Of a stretch of 64,000 bases of DNA, positions 34,962 through 56,745 are shown piece after piece (the first letter of the stretch is position 1; every line of letters starts with the position of its first letter). The notes below the pieces were generated by a model. That model did no database searches, was not told the DNA's origin, and was given only the letters and a program-made list of their open reading frames with translations. Both the position numbers and the translations under genes were made by a program. This DNA comes from a virus: the IMG/VR virus record IMGVR_UViG_3300020579_000006, positions 30,865-94,864 of that record. One strand, given 5' to 3'.

Positions 34962-34972
34962 GAGGTTAGGTA

Positions 34973-35335
34973 GTGGCTAGAATACCGCACAATAAAAAGT
35001 GGGCAACCAGAAAAGAAGCAAAAGCATATAAAGATAGAAGATACTACTTAAATAACTATGCTAAGATTAAAAATAAGACTTTACTTAAAACATATGGTAT
35101 AACGTTAGAACAATATGAACTTTTATTAAAAAAGCAAAACAACCGTTGTGCCATATGTGATAAACCCGGAGAAGAAAGTAGACACGGAAAACTGTATGTG
35201 GACCATTGCCATACTACTAAAGTGGTCAGAGGTCTCTTATGTGACCAATGTAATTTTGCTATCGGATTACTAAAAGATAGTCCCGTCTTATTCATGAAAA
35301 CTGCCAATTATTTGCTCTCAGGAGAAATAAAGTGA
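34973..35335 (+). CDS. endonuclease VII-like homing endonuclease
   Basis: A 120-residue product from GTG behind GGAGG. The family pattern is clear: KTYGITLEQYELLLKKQ, CAICDKPGEE, LYVDHCHTTKVVRGLLCDQC, NFAIGLLKDS. The four Cys hold zinc and the DH-x-H contains the catalytic His. The N-terminus is basic and short, without the extra ribbons of the 30073 gene. It ends in an overlap with the next gene's GTG. Confidence 0.88.
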   Translation: MARIPHNKKWATRKEAKAYKDRRYYLNNYAKIKNKTLLKTYGITLEQYELLLKKQNNRCAICDKPGEESRHGKLYVDHCHTTKVVRGLLCDQCNFAIGLLKDSPVLFMKTANYLLSGEIK

Positions 35336-45225: not shown

Positions 45226-45698
45226 TTATTACTCCGTTCTGCTATTACTGAATTCAGATGGTTTAAAACTTGATTAAACTGTCCATTTTCCGGACGGTCG
45301 TCAACAAGGTTTCCGGTTTCTTGGGCGTCTAGTAAAATCGCACAACAAGCGATAGCGTGTCCTAAATGATGAACCCCGCTGTCTTGTGCTAGTTCTTCCT
45401 TTGAGTCGAACCACGCGCTCAAGTGTCTCATTGCAGCGTCTATATAAATACTCGCTATTACTTTTTTTGCCCGCCAGTTATAAGGGCCGTATTTATCTGC
45501 TCCATTCATCATAGCGTGAGCACCATGCAAAACAGCTACTAAAGGCAGCTTTGAAATAGAAACTTTCTTTGCTCCTAGTAAATCTTTAGGATTAGAAGTT
45601 TCTGCTTTAGAATATTGTCCTGGTTTTATTACCATAGTTTGGTCGGGGTCTAATTTAAGATTATGTACCATACTAGAATTTGGTAATAGATTAGACAT
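45222..45698 (-). CDS. dATP/dGTP diphosphohydrolase-like protein (PF18909/DUF5664 type)
   Basis: The 158-residue product shows SNPKDLLGAKKVSISKLPLV, GADKYGPYNWR, YIDAAMRHLSAWFDSKEE and HHLGHAIACCAILLDAQ, the characteristic pattern of phage dATP/dGTP diphosphohydrolases (formerly DUF5664). They trim dATP or dGTP and in some phages help replace adenine by 2-aminoadenine. No PurZ is visible in this window, so base replacement cannot be claimed. Confidence 0.82.
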   Translation of the reverse strand: MSNLLPNSSMVHNLKLDPDQTMVIKPGQYSKAETSNPKDLLGAKKVSISKLPLVAVLHGAHAMMNGADKYGPYNWRAKKVIASIYIDAAMRHLSAWFDSKEELAQDSGVHHLGHAIACCAILLDAQETGNLVDDRPENGQFNQVLNHLNSVIAERSNK

Positions 45699-46143
45699 GC
45701 TTTAAAACCTCCTTTGACTTTATAAGATACTTTATAGCTTTTTGTAGAAGTTTAATATCGTCTTTAAAATCTCCTAGTCCTTTATTACAGGAGATGCACA
45801 GTAACCCTCTTATACATTTTCCACATATTTTGCGACCCGAACAACAACTGTGGTCGTGGTCTATCTGCCAACCTCTAGAACCAGGGTCTGTGGTCTGACA
45901 TATTCGGCACTTCCCATCTTGAGATTTTAATAGTGCCTCCCTTTTCTCTATAGAAAGATTAAATCTTTGCCTTAAATGTTTTTCAATGGCGTGATTAGGA
46001 TGTTTTTCTAAATATATTTTATGTCGTAAATTATCACAAGTTTTACAATATAGGAATACTCCTAGTATACCGTTTTTATCTTTATAAAACTCGTCTAATG
46101 GTTTCTCTCTTCCGCACTTTTTACAAACTTTTGTTTGCGTCAA
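45691..46143 (-). CDS. endonuclease VII-like homing endonuclease
   Basis: The 150-residue product starts at TTG in a TTGA overlap with the recA stop. An N-terminal four-Cys ribbon ([13 protein letters not shown] and CKTC) precedes the core: [50 protein letters not shown]. An extra [11 protein letters not shown] insert lies within the catalytic loop. It is free-standing beside recA. Confidence 0.87.
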
Positions 46144-47114
46144 ATAAAAATCTTCTTTCTGATAAGCGATTCTATTTCATCTCTTACTTTAATATTTTCT
46201 CGCAGCCAAGTTTTGGCATTCTCTGCTCCCTGGCCTATTCTCTCGCTACCGTAACTAAACCACGCACCACTTTTCTGAATTATTTCTTTTTCTACTCCTA
46301 AACTTAAAACGTCAGCTTCCTTGGAAATCCCCTCACCGTAAATTAAATCTACCTCTGCTTCCTTAAAAGGAGTAGACACTTTATTTTTAACCACTTTAAT
46401 GCGAGTTCTGGCTCCTATTACTTTATCTCCATCTTTGATTTGTTGAATTCTTCTAACGTCCAGTCTTAAACTTGCGTAGAACTTCAGAGCACGACCGCCA
46501 GTGGTGGTTTCGGGACTACCAAAAAGAACGCCTATTTTATCTCTCAACTGGTTAATAAAAATGATACAGGTGTTGGACTTAGCAACTACGGCAGTCAGTT
46601 TACGGAGAGCTTGACTCATCATTCGAGCCATTAAACCCATCTGAGGGTCGCCCATCTCTCCCTCTAGTTCTGCTTTAGGTACCAAGGCCGCGACGGAATC
46701 TATTACTATAATACTCACATCTCCGGAACGAACCAAAGCTTCGGCTATTTCTAAAGCCTGCTCGCCGTTGTCGGGCTGGCTCACAAAGAGATTATCAATA
46801 TCTACCCCTAGTTTTTGAGCATAAGAAGTATCTAAAGCGTGTTCCGCATCAATAAAAGCACACAAGCCGCCTTTTTTCTGAGATTCTGCTACTATATGTA
46901 GAGCTAAAGTAGTCTTGCCTCCAGACTCCGGGCCGTAAACTTCTATAACTCTACCCATAGGTACCCCACCCACGCCTATAGCTACGTCCAAAGCTAAAGA
47001 ACCGGTACTTACGGTTTCGGTATCAAAACTAGTTTTCTCCCCCAACTTAAATATAGCTCCGCTTCCATGCTGCTTTTTAATAGCTGTTACAGTTGCGTCT
47101 ATATTAGCTGCCAC
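46140..47114 (-). CDS. recA: RecA recombinase
   Basis: The 324-residue product forms ATP-dependent filaments on single-stranded DNA for strand exchange. Walker [10 protein letters not shown] is at residues 61-69, Walker B is [10 protein letters not shown], and the L1/L2 regions are [15 protein letters not shown] and [20 protein letters not shown]. It begins at GTG. The acidic tail of bacterial RecA is missing; the protein ends RKKIFI next to the inserted endonuclease gene. It follows the reductase gene with an 11-base overlap. Confidence 0.93.
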
Positions 47115-51472: not shown

Positions 51473-51652
51473 CTACTTTGCCGGATTCAGGTCGTGGACA
51501 GCGCCTTCTAGTTCTGCGAGTTTTCTTAAAGCTTTATCGCTAAGATTCACATAACCTGCTTTTATTATTAATACAAACTGGTTAGGAGTGATATTTTTAC
51601 CATTGACCCAGTCCAAAAGCGCTGAATCTTCGGGTGCTAGTTCGTCGTTCAC
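51473..51652 (-). CDS. small hypothetical protein starting inside the motif
   Basis: A 59-residue frame from GTG 51652 in GTCCGGAAAGTGAAC, preceded by GAGGAG. GTGA overlaps the upstream nuclease's stop. The product has PEDSALLDWVNGKNITPNQF and a helical C-terminus (DKALRKLAELEGAV). It may carry a small helix-turn-helix, but evidence is weak. Confidence 0.6.
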   Translation of the reverse strand: MNDELAPEDSALLDWVNGKNITPNQFVLIIKAGYVNLSDKALRKLAELEGAVHDLNPAK

Positions 51653-51662
51653 TTTCCGGACT
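51648..51662. repeat. dispersed TCCGG motif at a stop/start junction
   Basis: On the - strand GTCCGGAAAGTGAAC contains the TGA stop of the nuclease and the GTG start of the next gene. Confidence 0.75.
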
Positions 51663-52089
51663 CCTCAAACTCGTCTAGATAATTAGCCAAATTCCTTAAC
51701 CTGACCGCCGGTTTTAGCGGTGCTTTGCTATCTTCAAGTAAAGCCAGCGCCTTATTGCATCTTAAACACAAAATCCCTCTAATTGACTGTCGTCTAAACA
51801 TTCTTTTTGACTCTTCTATAAAAACCTTCTTATTGTGTACATTAAAAGTTTCTTTTTCACCGCTTAATTTTACAACTATAATATTCCAGATGTTACCAAG
51901 TTTTCGAGACTTAATTTGAATGCGGTCAAAGCGGTGGTCGTGGTCTAGACTAAGCCGGGTCTTACCAGGGGGACGCGCGCATCCTTTGCAGACACCCCCC
52001 TGCCGCGCTAGTAACTCGTTGTATTCGGCCAGAGTAATGCCGAAGTTTTTTTGATAGTACTTATCGGCGGCTTTTTCTTTGTCGGTCAT
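51649..52089 (-). CDS. endonuclease VII-like homing endonuclease
   Basis: I start at ATG 52089, giving MTDKEKAADKYYQKNFGITL; a longer frame upstream would run through the neighbouring gene. The 146-residue product has LARQGGVCKGC, RLSLDHDHRFD, then a 35-residue insertion, RGILCLRCNKALALL. The insertion between the DHD and the second Cys pair is longer than in the siblings. It ends by overlapping the next GTG. Confidence 0.82.
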   Translation of the reverse strand: MTDKEKAADKYYQKNFGITLAEYNELLARQGGVCKGCARPPGKTRLSLDHDHRFDRIQIKSRKLGNIWNIIVVKLSGEKETFNVHNKKVFIEESKRMFRRQSIRGILCLRCNKALALLEDSKAPLKPAVRLRNLANYLDEFEESGK

Positions 52090-52090
52090 A

Positions 52091-52591
52091 TTAAAAGTCG
52101 GACGAACTTGAACTACTGCTATCTGAAAAATTACTGGTGTCGCAACTCGAACTAGAATCGTAAGAACTCGAAGACGAATAATCACTAGATGAACTAGAAT
52201 CGTAACAAGAGCTAGTATCTAGTGGAGGTGTATCCGGAAGTTGAGATTCGTTGTGGTAGTCTGGTAAGGAATCATTATTACAACTTGCCAATTCGGCCCC
52301 TATGATTCCTCCGGTTACTCCTCCAATCGCGGCCCCGATAAGTTCACTTTCCGGACAACCTCCACTCAGGGCGTCAGCCACTAAAAACCCTGTCAGAGCG
52401 TCGTTGCTATTATCCCTCACAACTACGGTTTCACGAGTAGTTTCATGATACGTATTAATAGGTCTGTTATAGGTTTGAACAGGAATTCCGCTTAATCCCG
52501 AAGTTGTTTGAGCCATTATTCTGGCTGTCTGACTTTTGGAAACCGGTTTCTCAGATTCTTCTTTCTTATTTTTCTTCTTAAATGGCCACAT
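52091..52591 (-). CDS. glycine-zipper protein with Ser/Asp-rich tail
   Basis: The 166-residue product has a basic N-terminus (MWPFKKKNKKEE), a glycine-zipper segment (GAAIGGVTGGIIGAELASC, residues about 87-105) and a 45-residue tail almost only of Ser, Asp, Tyr and Cys. The zipper suggests membrane insertion. The tail's tandem Ser/Asp/Tyr codons suggest recent repeat expansion. Motif copy 52342-52356 lies inside. Function unknown. Confidence 0.6.
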   Translation of the reverse strand: MWPFKKKNKKEESEKPVSKSQTARIMAQTTSGLSGIPVQTYNRPINTYHETTRETVVVRDNSNDALTGFLVADALSGGCPESELIGAAIGGVTGGIIGAELASCNNDSLPDYHNESQLPDTPPLDTSSCYDSSSSSDYSSSSSYDSSSSCDTSNFSDSSSSSSSDF

Positions 52592-52862: not shown

Positions 52863-53073
52863 CTTCTGCTCCTTGTTCTAAGAGTGCGGACACCGGAATC
52901 GTCATCTTTCCGTCTGAATAACTCGCGTTACTTCTGTATAAAAGAGGTATCAAATCGCTCGAAGCTTTCAGATGTAACCAAATATAAGCGAGATTATAGC
53001 CATCCAATGCTATGGCTGAACCGTCCGTAAAATGAACATATAGACTATCCGGGATTTTGCTCTCTAGGTCCAT
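52843..53073 (-). CDS. hypothetical protein
   Basis: A 76-residue product from ATG with beta-rich N-terminus (SLYVHFTDGSAIALDGYNLA) and SDGKMTIPVSALLEQG. It overlaps both neighbours slightly. Nothing identifies it. Confidence 0.55.
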   Translation of the reverse strand: MDLESKIPDSLYVHFTDGSAIALDGYNLAYIWLHLKASSDLIPLLYRSNASYSDGKMTIPVSALLEQGAEVEPRTR

Positions 53074-53236
53074 CTTTTACCTCCGCAGCTTTCTGTTTTT
53101 GTTTCTGCTTCGCAAGTCTCCAAGCTTTTCTTTCGGTGAATCTTTCTTTATTCATACTCCACACGGACCATTCGAAGTAGCAAACGAAGAAACCCTGCAA
53201 AACTATTAACCAGAGTAAGAAGTTTTCTTGGGTCAT
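53045..53236 (-). CDS. small membrane protein
   Basis: A 63-residue product from ATG with AGGTGGG upstream. Residues 5-24 (FLLWLIVLQGFFVCYFEWSV) form one membrane helix, followed by a basic, Lys/Gln-rich cytoplasmic-type tail. Such small proteins often assist lysis in phages. It overlaps the next gene by 29 bases. Confidence 0.6.
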   Translation of the reverse strand: MTQENFLLWLIVLQGFFVCYFEWSVWSMNKERFTERKAWRLAKQKQKQKAAEVKDGPREQNPG

Positions 53237-53244
53237 AAACCCAC

Positions 53245-53415
53245 CTAATTCTGAATTCCGTAGCGGGCGTCGCGCTTTGCTGGTACTGAAAAAACTTGTT
53301 CCGTACTATATTTACACTTTGGACACTTCGGGTTTTTGTCCGGAAACCGGACGTGAAAAATCTCGAAGCGATGGCCACATTCTAGCCGGTGACAAACGTA
53401 CTCGTAAATTGGAAT
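53245..53415 (-). CDS. FmdB-type zinc ribbon protein with ATT start
   Basis: The frame reads ATT CCA ATT TAC GAG TAC, giving (M)PIYEYVC, the typical opening of FmdB-family regulatory zinc ribbons, followed by CGHRFEIFHVRFPDKNPKCP and KC. AGGAGG lies five bases before the ATT. An in-frame TAG is four codons upstream, and no ATG, GTG or TTG exists anywhere in the 56-codon frame, so a near-cognate start is required if this gene is expressed. The motif copy at 53338-53352 encodes VRFPD. Confidence 0.75.
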   Translation of the reverse strand: MPIYEYVCHRLECGHRFEIFHVRFPDKNPKCPKCKYSTEQVFSVPAKRDARYGIQN

Positions 53416-53424
53416 GACATCCTC

Positions 53425-53745
53425 CTATTTCTTAGATACAGCCGGTGCCTTGGCTGGTTCGGGTTTTGGCGCTTCTGAAAACCGGAGCGTATTAGGGTCA
53501 AAAACCGTAGTATCCGGCCATTTATTCTCAGTAACTACTTTCTTGCCTTCGTTTTGCAGGTCGGTCAGTGCGCCCTGAAACTTGACTGTAGCTTCCTGCA
53601 TTTCCTTTTGTGCAATTTGGGCGTCTTTCTGCTTAACTTGTAACCGCAAACTTTGGACTTCGGTAGGGGTCAAAGCCGGTGCTACTGACTGCCCGAACAA
53701 ACCCGTCGCAAATAACAATCCAACTGCTAAATATTTAGTCTTCAT
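53425..53745 (-). CDS. exported coiled-coil protein
   Basis: The 106-residue product has a signal peptide (MKTKYLAVGLLFATGLFGQS), then a helical Gln/Lys-rich segment (LRLQVKQKDAQIAQKEMQEA) and a Pro/Ala/Lys-rich tail. It lies directly downstream of the SleB-type hydrolase and may be a periplasmic lysis component such as an outer spanin-like protein, but no lipobox is present. Confidence 0.62.
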   Translation of the reverse strand: MKTKYLAVGLLFATGLFGQSVAPALTPTEVQSLRLQVKQKDAQIAQKEMQEATVKFQGALTDLQNEGKKVVTENKWPDTTVFDPNTLRFSEAPKPEPAKAPAVSKK

Positions 53746-53760
53746 TATTCTCCTTTATTT

Positions 53761-54195
53761 TCACTTGAAAAACGTGGTACGTCCTATGACGGCGCATCGA
53801 GGATGCAGGTCGGGTTTATTGGCTATGTTCTCAAAAAACCAGCCTGAAGTTGAATCCGCGAGCACAGCGTAATACAAAGCTCCGTTTGTAGTATCTACAG
53901 GAGGATTTTCTCCGTAGAAATTGTCTAAAAACTGCAAGAACTTATTAAATTCGGGTTCTCTGGAGTCCGGAAAACGGACAGTGTTTGGGTCGCCTTTTAT
54001 GCTCATAGAACTTAGCTGATTCAAAGCAATAGCATTTTCATACATACTACTTTGATGCCAGCCCGCCTTAGCTCGATTATGTAAAACTTGCGCGACGGAA
54101 ATCATCCCGTTCGTCCCTTCACCTCGCATTTCTCGCCAGCAAGCTAGCGCTACAATTGCTTTTTCAAATTCCTGGCCGAGCACGCACCCTCCCAT
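53761..54195 (-). CDS. cell wall hydrolase, SleB family endolysin
   Basis: The 144-residue product shows CWREMRGEGTNGMISVAQVL followed by HNRAK, the family's catalytic Glu region, then SGWFFENI and HPRCAVIGRTTFF. SleB-type (Hydrolase_2) enzymes are lytic transglycosylases that break peptidoglycan, so this is the best endolysin candidate. No signal peptide is evident, so a holin or another export route is needed. It starts inside the end of the ClpP-like gene. Confidence 0.82.
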   Translation of the reverse strand: MGGCVLGQEFEKAIVALACWREMRGEGTNGMISVAQVLHNRAKAGWHQSSMYENAIALNQLSSMSIKGDPNTVRFPDSREPEFNKFLQFLDNFYGENPPVDTTNGALYYAVLADSTSGWFFENIANKPDLHPRCAVIGRTTFFK

Positions 54196-54637
54196 CGTAT
54201 ATTTCGTCGATAAAGCCCAACTTTAGCGCAGTCTCTACTCCAAATATTTTCCGGTTTAATGCTATTTCATAAGCTACTTTTTTTATACCCCGGTTTTTAA
54301 ACAACTCGAAAATTACCACGTCGTAGTGGGGTTTAAAATCTTTGTTATCTTTTAACTCAGAAAATTCCACAAGGTGGAACATGAATTGTGTGGTAGGAGT
54401 AGCCCGCCTTATCTTGGCCGCCTGTAAAATTACGGTAGCTGCACTAGCCACTACGCCCGTACCGGTTATTATGCTATTAGGTACCGATTGGATTTTGTCG
54501 TATATCGCAAACCCGTCAGTCAGTGTTCCGCCAAAACTGTTTAAAAAGAAATTACATCTCTTCGGATTTTTGTCTAATCTTCGGCACACGTCCAAAGCCA
54601 TGTCGGGTCCAACGTCGCCAAAAAGGTAAATCGCCAT
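54164..54637 (-). CDS. ClpP-like serine protease
   Basis: I start at ATG 54637, in a TAATG overlap and behind AGGAG, giving MAIYLFGDVGPDMALDVCRR. The 157-residue product has LNSFGGTLTDGFAIYDKIQS (oxyanion loop), GVVASAATVILQAA with the catalytic Ser, FMFHLVEF with the catalytic His and LKLGFIDEIYD. It is shorter than cellular ClpP. In other phages such proteases mature heads, but here it lies beside lysis genes, so the role is open. Confidence 0.82.
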   Translation of the reverse strand: MAIYLFGDVGPDMALDVCRRLDKNPKRCNFFLNSFGGTLTDGFAIYDKIQSVPNSIITGTGVVASAATVILQAAKIRRATPTTQFMFHLVEFSELKDNKDFKPHYDVVIFELFKNRGIKKVAYEIALNRKIFGVETALKLGFIDEIYDGRVRARPGI

Positions 54638-55014
54638 TACTTCTTCTCCTGTGGAACGTAGACGACTCCGCAGACGCAACAAACGTGGACAACGAAATCC
54701 AGCTTGCCTTCATCAAACACGGTTATCAGTGCTGTGCCTCGACTTCCATCAGCATACTCCTGAGTGCGTGGCTTCTGCGCGTGCCCAAGCGAGCAGTACT
54801 CCTCGCCGGGTTTCAGCTCCTCTACTTTGGACATCTTTTCGAGTTCTTCTACTGACTTCCAAACCCATCGTTTGCCGTCCCACATATCGACCCCGCCGCC
54901 TATGCCATTAGTGTCGCGTAGTTCTCCAATGGACGGTTTGTGCTCCTGTCCCATCGCCACTCCCGCGAGTCCTAGCATCCCTGCCAGTCGCAGCATGAAT
55001 CCTTTACGTGTCAT
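54637..55014 (-). CDS. exported protein with two CxxC-like motifs
   Basis: I start at ATG 55014 in a TAAAATG junction. The 125-residue product has an N-terminal signal (MTRKGFMLRLAGMLGLAGVA, then MGQ), a Trp-rich middle (VDMWDGKRWVWKSVEELEKM) and a C-terminal VCCVCGVVYVP metal-site-like segment. Export and a CxxC motif suggest an envelope role. Not recognised further. Confidence 0.58.
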   Translation of the reverse strand: MTRKGFMLRLAGMLGLAGVAMGQEHKPSIGELRDTNGIGGGVDMWDGKRWVWKSVEELEKMSKVEELKPGEEYCSLGHAQKPRTQEYADGSRGTALITVFDEGKLDFVVHVCCVCGVVYVPQEKK

Positions 55015-56111: not shown

Positions 56112-56354
56112 CTAGCTCATCGCGTCAAAACCGCAGTTATCGCATTTAAACTCGTAATCGTCAAACTCTTCCGCTAACTTAAACCCGCAAATAGGACAGA
56201 CATTTTTTCCATGAGGCCAAGCGGTATATTTCCCCATTATTTTCAGACGTTCTTCCTCTGTTATGACCGGCGGTTCTGTACAGAGAGTGCAGTACTTCGC
56301 TTTAGTCTGACCAGCTAAATATACACCGTGTTCACATTTATCCGTTGGTTTCAT
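56112..56354 (-). CDS. double zinc-ribbon protein
   Basis: The 80-residue product carries CEHG...YCTLC at the N-terminus and CPICGFKLAEEFDDYEFKCD with NCGFD at the C-terminus, two likely zinc sites. It starts at ATG inside the end of the neighbouring nuclease gene. Small ribbons of this kind often bind RNA polymerase or DNA. Next to a sigma-like gene, a transcription role is possible but unproven. Confidence 0.62.
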   Translation of the reverse strand: MKPTDKCEHGVYLAGQTKAKYCTLCTEPPVITEEERLKIMGKYTAWPHGKNVCPICGFKLAEEFDDYEFKCDNCGFDAMS

Positions 56355-56745
56355 TGCTATTCAACTTTAAATATTCAATTAAGTTTTGTAAAATATAAAT
56401 ATTATCTTTTGTATGACCAAGAGCTAAATTACAATTCGTACATAAAACTCCTCTTAACACGCCAAATATTTTATGGTCTGCAACCCATTTGTTGTCTCGT
56501 CCCCCAGGATTTTCTGTTCTACATACTGCACACTTTCCACCTTGTTTTGCGAGCATTTCTTCTTTTTGTTTTAATGTTATTCCTTTAGTGAGACGAAGAC
56601 TTCTATCTTCTGCCCACCGAGGATACTTTCTATATCTTTTTCGTTCGTATCCTCGGACCTTATCCCGATTATTTTTTCTCCACTTACTCATGTATTCTGA
56701 GTGTTTTTTACGTTTATTAATTAAAGTGGAGTTTTCTATTTCCAT
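56338..56745 (-). CDS. endonuclease VII-like protein, possibly inactive
   Basis: The 135-residue product has a basic N-terminus (RKKHSEYMSKWRKNNRDKVR), GITLKQKEEMLAKQ, CAVCRTENPGG, WVADHKIFGVLRGVLCTNC and NLALGH. Its siblings have DH-x-H-x-T in the catalytic loop; here the second His and two residues are missing (DHKIFG). It may therefore be weak or inactive. It overlaps the upstream HNH gene by 29 bases. Confidence 0.8.
   Translation of the reverse strand: MEIENSTLINKRKKHSEYMSKWRKNNRDKVRGYERKRYRKYPRWAEDRSLRLTKGITLKQKEEMLAKQGGKCAVCRTENPGGRDNKWVADHKIFGVLRGVLCTNCNLALGHTKDNIYILQNLIEYLKLNSNETNG

What the first reader, a model, noticed from the sequence alone, without database searches (positions are those of the whole stretch)
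53245..53421. FmdB-type zinc ribbon gene whose only possible start is AUU
MPIYEY is the usual beginning of this family. Here the codons are ATT CCA ATT TAC GAG TAC, with AGGAGG at ideal distance. The 56-codon frame contains no ATG, GTG or TTG at all, and an in-frame TAG lies four codons upstream. Known bacterial AUU starts (infC, pcnB) are regulated by IF3, so this gene might be controlled the same way.
Basis: partly seen in the sequence, partly recalled or inferred. Interest (0 to 1): 0.8.

Follow-up and report, generated by a model that had tools for sequence, protein, structure and literature searches.

The report
Phage zinc-ribbon gene starting with AUU
A small phage gene for an FmdB-type zinc-binding protein really does begin with the very rare start codon AUU, and unrelated phages carry the same kind of gene with AUU or AUC starts, so this looks like a genuine weak start that gene-finding programs overlook rather than a sequencing mistake.

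Summary
Confirmed. On the minus strand at 53415-53245, ATT CCA ATT TAC GAG TAC opens a 56-codon FmdB zinc-ribbon frame (PF09723 E=1e-10; TIGR02605 42.6 bits, cut-off 31.3). It holds no ATG, GTG or TTG. AGGAGG lies 5 nt upstream, overlapping the previous gene's TAG, and the frame fills an otherwise empty 188-nt gap in a tight operon. The window is a metagenomic phage contig.

A scan of 2.9 million viral contigs for ATT/ATC/ATA at the Met position of PIYEYxC found about 14 distinct FmdB genes, most with a well-placed Shine-Dalgarno sequence. The matched control (AAG/ACG/AGG) found none. One ATT pair kept its start across 46% synonymous against 7% nonsynonymous divergence; three related phages all use ATC. 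Separately, one Gemmatimonadota group (12 contigs) has AUA in a chromosomal FmdB gene.

This argues against sequencing error or decay, and for real initiation at AUU: weak, rescued by a strong SD and probably coupled to the upstream gene. IF3 control follows from precedents (infC, pcnB, sigR) but was not shown. Enrichment in FmdB over other phage genes is only suggestive. Caveats: one contig without reads, no close relative, atypical codon use.

The parts
53245..53415 (-). FmdB-type zinc-ribbon gene, 56 codons plus TAG, read from ATT
   Evidence: Translation; PF09723 above cut-off with Met written first and on the raw DNA frame; TIGR02605 above cut-off
53413..53415 (-). ATT start codon at the family's Met position
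   Evidence: Only near-cognate start codon between the upstream stop and the conserved PIYEY; same codon position is ATT/ATC in about 13 other phage FmdB genes
53421..53426 (-). Shine-Dalgarno AGGAGG, 5 nt before ATT
   Evidence: Sequence; SD-to-ATT spacing computed
53425..53745 (-). Preceding gene (106 aa, unknown function); its TAG overlaps the SD, so translation of the two genes is probably coupled
   Evidence: ORF list; no convincing family; coupling is inference
53418..53420 (-). Out-of-frame ATG touching the SD (zero spacing), opens 12 codons only; judged not a start
   Evidence: Sequence and translation
53045..53236 (-). Next gene (63 aa), ATG 8 nt after the FmdB stop
   Evidence: ORF list; start context

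Best explanation
This is a real phage gene for a small FmdB-type zinc-ribbon protein, translated from AUU. A full Shine-Dalgarno sequence 5 nt upstream, placed so that ribosomes ending the preceding gene at its overlapping TAG are already in position, lets the initiator tRNA start at AUU with a small fraction of AUG efficiency. The likely effect is to keep this protein scarce relative to its operon neighbours. The gene and the position of its start are supported by sequence and comparison; coupling, low yield and sensitivity to IF3 are inferred from precedents.
For: ATT is the only start compatible with both the SD and the family N-terminus. The frame fills a 188-nt gap in a tight operon. About 14 distinct phage FmdB genes have ATT/ATC/ATA at this position while the matched control AAG/ACG/AGG has none in the same collection. 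Ten of ten with no other usable start have an SD core at good spacing against 58 of 96 canonical FmdB genes, p about 0.01. L049 and L065 keep ATT with pS 0.46 and pN 0.073; L052, L070 and L076, related phages, all have ATC. Published AUU/AUA starts with strong SDs give about 10% of AUG yield (PMC13009471).
Against: Single metagenomic contig, no reads; no close relative of this very gene. Codon-use score of the frame is below that of the phage's other genes and below one antisense frame. Distant relatives mostly start ATG. No expression data.
Confidence: 0.74

Rival explanations
1. The ATT is a base-calling or assembly error, or a fresh start-loss mutation, in a gene that normally begins ATG.
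For: One contig without reads; most FmdB genes start ATG; codon use atypical.
Against: Error or decay should also produce AAG/ACG/AGG at this position, and none exists in the collection against about 14 ATT/ATC/ATA genes. The window gene keeps a full AGGAGG at proper spacing and an intact frame and cysteines. One ATT pair is under purifying selection. The control speaks for the set; for this one copy an error is not excluded.
Confidence: 0.14
2. Weak AUU/AUC starts occur at low frequency in phage genes of all families and are merely easy to see in FmdB because its N-terminus is fixed; nothing ties them to FmdB.
For: In L070 a second, non-FmdB gene has ATC with an SD where its homologue has ATG. 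The FmdB fraction of perhaps 2-3% rests on a rough denominator. (This rival concerns breadth and is compatible with the best explanation for the window gene.)
Against: Only one credible case among roughly 320 aligned non-FmdB starts in the fetched contigs; no other case was found in the window's phage by comparison with a related genome.
Confidence: 0.45
3. The protein is made from another start: the out-of-frame ATG followed by a frameshift, or GTC one codon before ATT, or read-through of the preceding gene's TAG, which is in the same frame.
For: An ATG touches the SD; GTC is a proven start in Streptomyces sigR (PMC5472188); the upstream gene's TAG is in frame with FmdB.
Against: The ATG has 0 nt and GTC 2 nt spacing to the SD; no slippery site was seen; other ATT/ATC FmdB genes lack these features, with the upstream in-frame stop at 3 to 15 codons and often not the neighbour's stop.
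Confidence: 0.06
4. The AUU start makes the gene a sensor of IF3: translation rises when ribosomes outnumber IF3 during infection.
For: IF3 represses non-canonical starts in E. coli and Streptomyces (PMC2268962, PMC5472188).
Against: No evidence of regulation here; no phage IF3 gene; S. aureus cvfC1 AUU showed no medium-dependent change (PMC13009471). Simple attenuation explains the data as well.
Confidence: 0.2

Closest known systems
E. coli infC and pcnB (AUU starts)
   Same: Gene begins AUU; initiation inefficient and discriminated by IF3 (PMC5472188 for infC; Binns and Masters 2002 and Sacerdot 1996 as cited in PMC13009471 and PMC2268962)
   Different: Cellular genes for IF3 and poly(A) polymerase; autoregulation shown for infC, nothing shown here
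Staphylococcus aureus cvfC1 (AUU), ccpN and infC (AUA)
   Same: cvfC1 is a small (61 aa) putative zinc-finger gene with a conserved AUU and strong extended SD; about 10% of AUG yield (PMC13009471)
   Different: Chromosomal operon of staphylococci, mapped by ribosome profiling; relation of CvfC1 to FmdB not tested here
Streptomyces sigR (GTC start)
   Same: Non-canonical start behind an extended SD (AGGAGGTG), overlooked by annotation, limits yield and is repressed by IF3 (PMC5472188)
   Different: Different codon and gene; regulation demonstrated there
T4 gene 26* (internal AUU start; from own knowledge, not found in the library)
   Same: A phage protein started at AUU
   Different: Internal start inside a longer gene; here AUU is the only start of the gene
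FmdB-like genes of T4-related phages (e.g. Enterobacter phage myPSH1140)
   Same: Same protein family, small phage gene
   Different: Annotated and read from ATG (ATG CCA TTG TAT)

Membership tests
FmdB zinc-ribbon family (PF09723 / TIGR02605) | Profile match above curated cut-off over the whole domain | tested here: met
   PF09723 41.8 bits (cut-off 34.4); TIGR02605 42.6 bits (cut-off 31.3); raw frame 35.2 bits
FmdB zinc-ribbon family (PF09723 / TIGR02605) | N-terminal (M)PIYEY and two cysteine knuckles | tested here: met
   IPIYEYVCHRLECGH...KCPKCKY; the first knuckle has a longer spacing (C-x4-C) than the usual CxxC
FmdB zinc-ribbon family (PF09723 / TIGR02605) | Binds zinc / acts as regulator | not testable with these tools
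   Needs purified protein or genetics
Genes with natural AUU-type start codons (infC, pcnB kind) | No canonical start available; AUU at the conserved N-terminus behind an SD | tested here: met
Genes with natural AUU-type start codons (infC, pcnB kind) | Non-canonical start conserved among relatives | tested here: inconclusive
   Conserved within other phage groups (L049/L065 ATT; L052/L070/L076 ATC), but no close relative of the window gene exists in the collections
Genes with natural AUU-type start codons (infC, pcnB kind) | Yield rises when AUU becomes AUG; repressed by excess IF3 | not testable with these tools
   Needs reporter experiment

The most novel reading that the evidence does not exclude
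Phage FmdB genes are under repeated, convergent selection for IF3-discriminated start codons (AUU, AUC), so that their translation either reads out the ratio of ribosomes to IF3 during infection or fixes a low dose of the protein within its operon; the same family in one Gemmatimonadota group has moved to AUA for the same reason.
Probability: 0.18. Interest if true: 0.75.

Novelty: new member of a known kind. Interest (0 to 1): 0.55.

Why it matters
Few natural AUU/AUC/AUA starts are documented, partly because gene finders admit only ATG, GTG and TTG. FmdB, with its fixed MPIYEY N-terminus, makes such starts visible from sequence alone. The scan supplies a set of phage genes and a bacterial group on which AUU-type initiation can be tested directly, and it implies that annotated phage genomes miss or truncate some genes.

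Tried and rejected
Close relatives of the region: none in annotated phages; the exact start sequence is in no other listed viral contig. The record holding L028, 66% identical in a nearby gene, ends before the region and gave no match to this FmdB or to the ClpP-like gene. Isolated phages with an ATT FmdB gene: four queries found no match. Tunturiibacter phage Tunturi_5 looked promising because its annotated gene begins late, but an in-frame TTG behind GAGGTGG explains it. L058 was dropped because ATG lies two codons upstream; L047 and L068 dropped as doubtful; L052, L062, L064 and L070 kept as probable only, since a canonical codon lies further upstream in frame. About ten ATH hits are chance, short frames or unrelated proteins. 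Wider AUU use in this phage: comparison of 47 homologous frames with the related genome gave no convincing second case. Start-region RNA fold: ordinary, z = +0.46. Phage-encoded IF3: none found.

Full report
What is there. The window is bases 30865-94864 of a 94,864-base virus record. On its minus strand the sequence reads AAG AAA TAG GAG GAT GTC ATT CCA ATT TAC GAG TAC GTT TGT. The frame from ATT (53415-53413) to TAG (53247-53245) is 56 codons and holds no ATG, GTG, TTG or CTG. With Met written first, the protein passes the curated cut-offs of PF09723 (41.8 bits) and TIGR02605, 'FmdB family zinc ribbon protein' (42.6 bits), both from profile position 1. PF09723 also passes on the raw DNA (35.2 bits). 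AGGAGG at 53426-53421 overlaps the stop of the preceding gene and lies 5 nt from ATT. The next gene starts 8 nt after the FmdB stop. Left uncalled, the gene would leave a 188-nt hole in a tightly packed operon.

Alternative starts. Between the upstream TAG and ATT lie only GAG GAT GTC. GTC would have 2 nt to the SD; an out-of-frame ATG would have 0 nt and opens 12 codons. Other genes of this strand show usual spacings. ATT is therefore the only start that fits both the SD and the family's N-terminus.

Error or decay? The first relatives search used peptides that include Met and is therefore biased towards ATG; it found ATG genes at 35-52% identity. I then scanned 2.9 million viral contigs with the start codon open. 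ATH (ATT, ATC, ATA) before CCN ATH TAY GAR TAY NNN TGY gave 31 stretches. Translation showed that about ten are chance and the rest FmdB genes; after removing duplicates and doubtful cases 14 remain, the window included. The matched control AVG (AAG, ACG, AGG; also three one-step neighbours of ATG) gave none; the V code was checked in a window search. A sub-pattern occurs 17 times in all, 3 of them in that sample, so the canonical total is roughly 700 with a wide error and ATH is perhaps 2-3%. If ATT arose by error or decay, the second-base control should not have been empty.

Signs of function. Ten ATT/ATC genes with no other usable start all carry an SD core of four or more bases at 5-10 nt, against 58 of 96 canonical FmdB genes (two of the ten, L054 and L066, read by eye; Fisher p about 0.01). 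L049 and L065 both start ATT and differ at 46% of synonymous but 7% of nonsynonymous sites, so the protein is under selection while ATT is kept; an ATG relative is about 66% identical. L052, L070 and L076, from related phages that share other genes at roughly 42-60% identity, all use ATC. On a poorly resolved tree the start type changes at least 11 times. Some of these genes lie in structural operons: after a major head protein in L054 and, by my reading of neighbours that matched no profile, near portal-like or sheath-like genes in L059, L057 and L076. In Tunturi_5 a divergent homologue lies between genes annotated tail terminator and tail sheath. In the window itself the minus-strand neighbourhood holds a UvsX-like recombinase, ribonucleotide reductase, endolysin-like, ClpP-like and endonuclease VII genes.

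Cells. The same ATH scan of about 85,000 bacterial and archaeal species gave 49 stretches. Only 12 are FmdB genes, from Gemmatimonadota as far as titles tell, all with ATA after ATC and nearly the same C-terminus. Pairs among them show pS mostly 0.46-0.81 with pN 0.05-0.25. Among 298 Gemmatimonadota genomes nine matches are ATA and the rest ATG. Canonical matches occur in 39 and 34 of 398 genomes in two other phyla, so ATH appears much rarer in cells than in phages. In this group the start could be ATA or the ATC just before it; SDs are weak or absent in several.

Is FmdB special? Aligning start positions across homologues in 1.7 Mb of fetched viral contigs, among about 320 non-FmdB starts without an upstream alternative only one convincing case was found: ATC with an SD in L070, where the homologue in L057 has ATG. 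This hints at enrichment in FmdB, but samples are small and contigs were chosen for FmdB. I leave it open.

Mechanism. Known cases show that AUU/AUA starts can work at about a tenth of AUG with strong or extended SDs (PMC13009471) and that IF3 discriminates against non-canonical starts (PMC5472188, PMC2268962). S. aureus cvfC1, a 61-aa putative zinc-finger gene with a conserved AUU, is strikingly similar, though whether it is FmdB-related was not tested. By analogy the window gene should be translated weakly, helped by ribosomes terminating on the overlapping TAG. Whether IF3 makes it a switch is unknown; the record encodes no IF3.

Limits. One contig, no reads, no close relative; collections may withhold records very near the window. 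The codon-use score of the frame is below that of the phage's other genes, perhaps from a short Cys-rich composition or recent acquisition. Literature searches found no report of this pattern, but most subscription papers are not held.

Noticed in passing
L200, L201, L204, L208, L216, L221, L223, L232, L233, L235, L241, L243: A chromosomal FmdB gene of a Gemmatimonadota group has ATA (preceded by ATC) where sister genomes have ATG; no canonical start lies close upstream, and the protein is under purifying selection.
   Followed up: partly
L070:6989 onward, + strand: A second gene in a phage whose FmdB starts ATC also begins ATC behind GGAGGG, where its 60% identical homologue in L057 has ATG.
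   Followed up: partly
L292 (Tunturiibacter phage Tunturi_5), 1495-1905: The annotated gene gp325 starts at an internal ATG; homology and an SD point to an upstream TTG, so the annotation is probably truncated by 15 residues.
   Followed up: partly
window 54164-54682, - strand: A ClpP-like protease (PF00574; best PHROG 'head maturation protease') lies among lysis-like and metabolic genes on the minus strand.
   Followed up: no
window 51649-52185, 56338-56745 and 45691-46176, - strand: Several endonuclease VII/HNH-like genes are scattered through the minus-strand gene cluster, with a further similar frame on the plus strand near 34970-35335.
   Followed up: no
window 53181-53417, + strand: An antisense frame opposite the FmdB gene is open and scores better in codon use than the FmdB frame; judged a shadow frame, since it has no canonical start for 32 codons and no supporting match was sought.
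   Followed up: no
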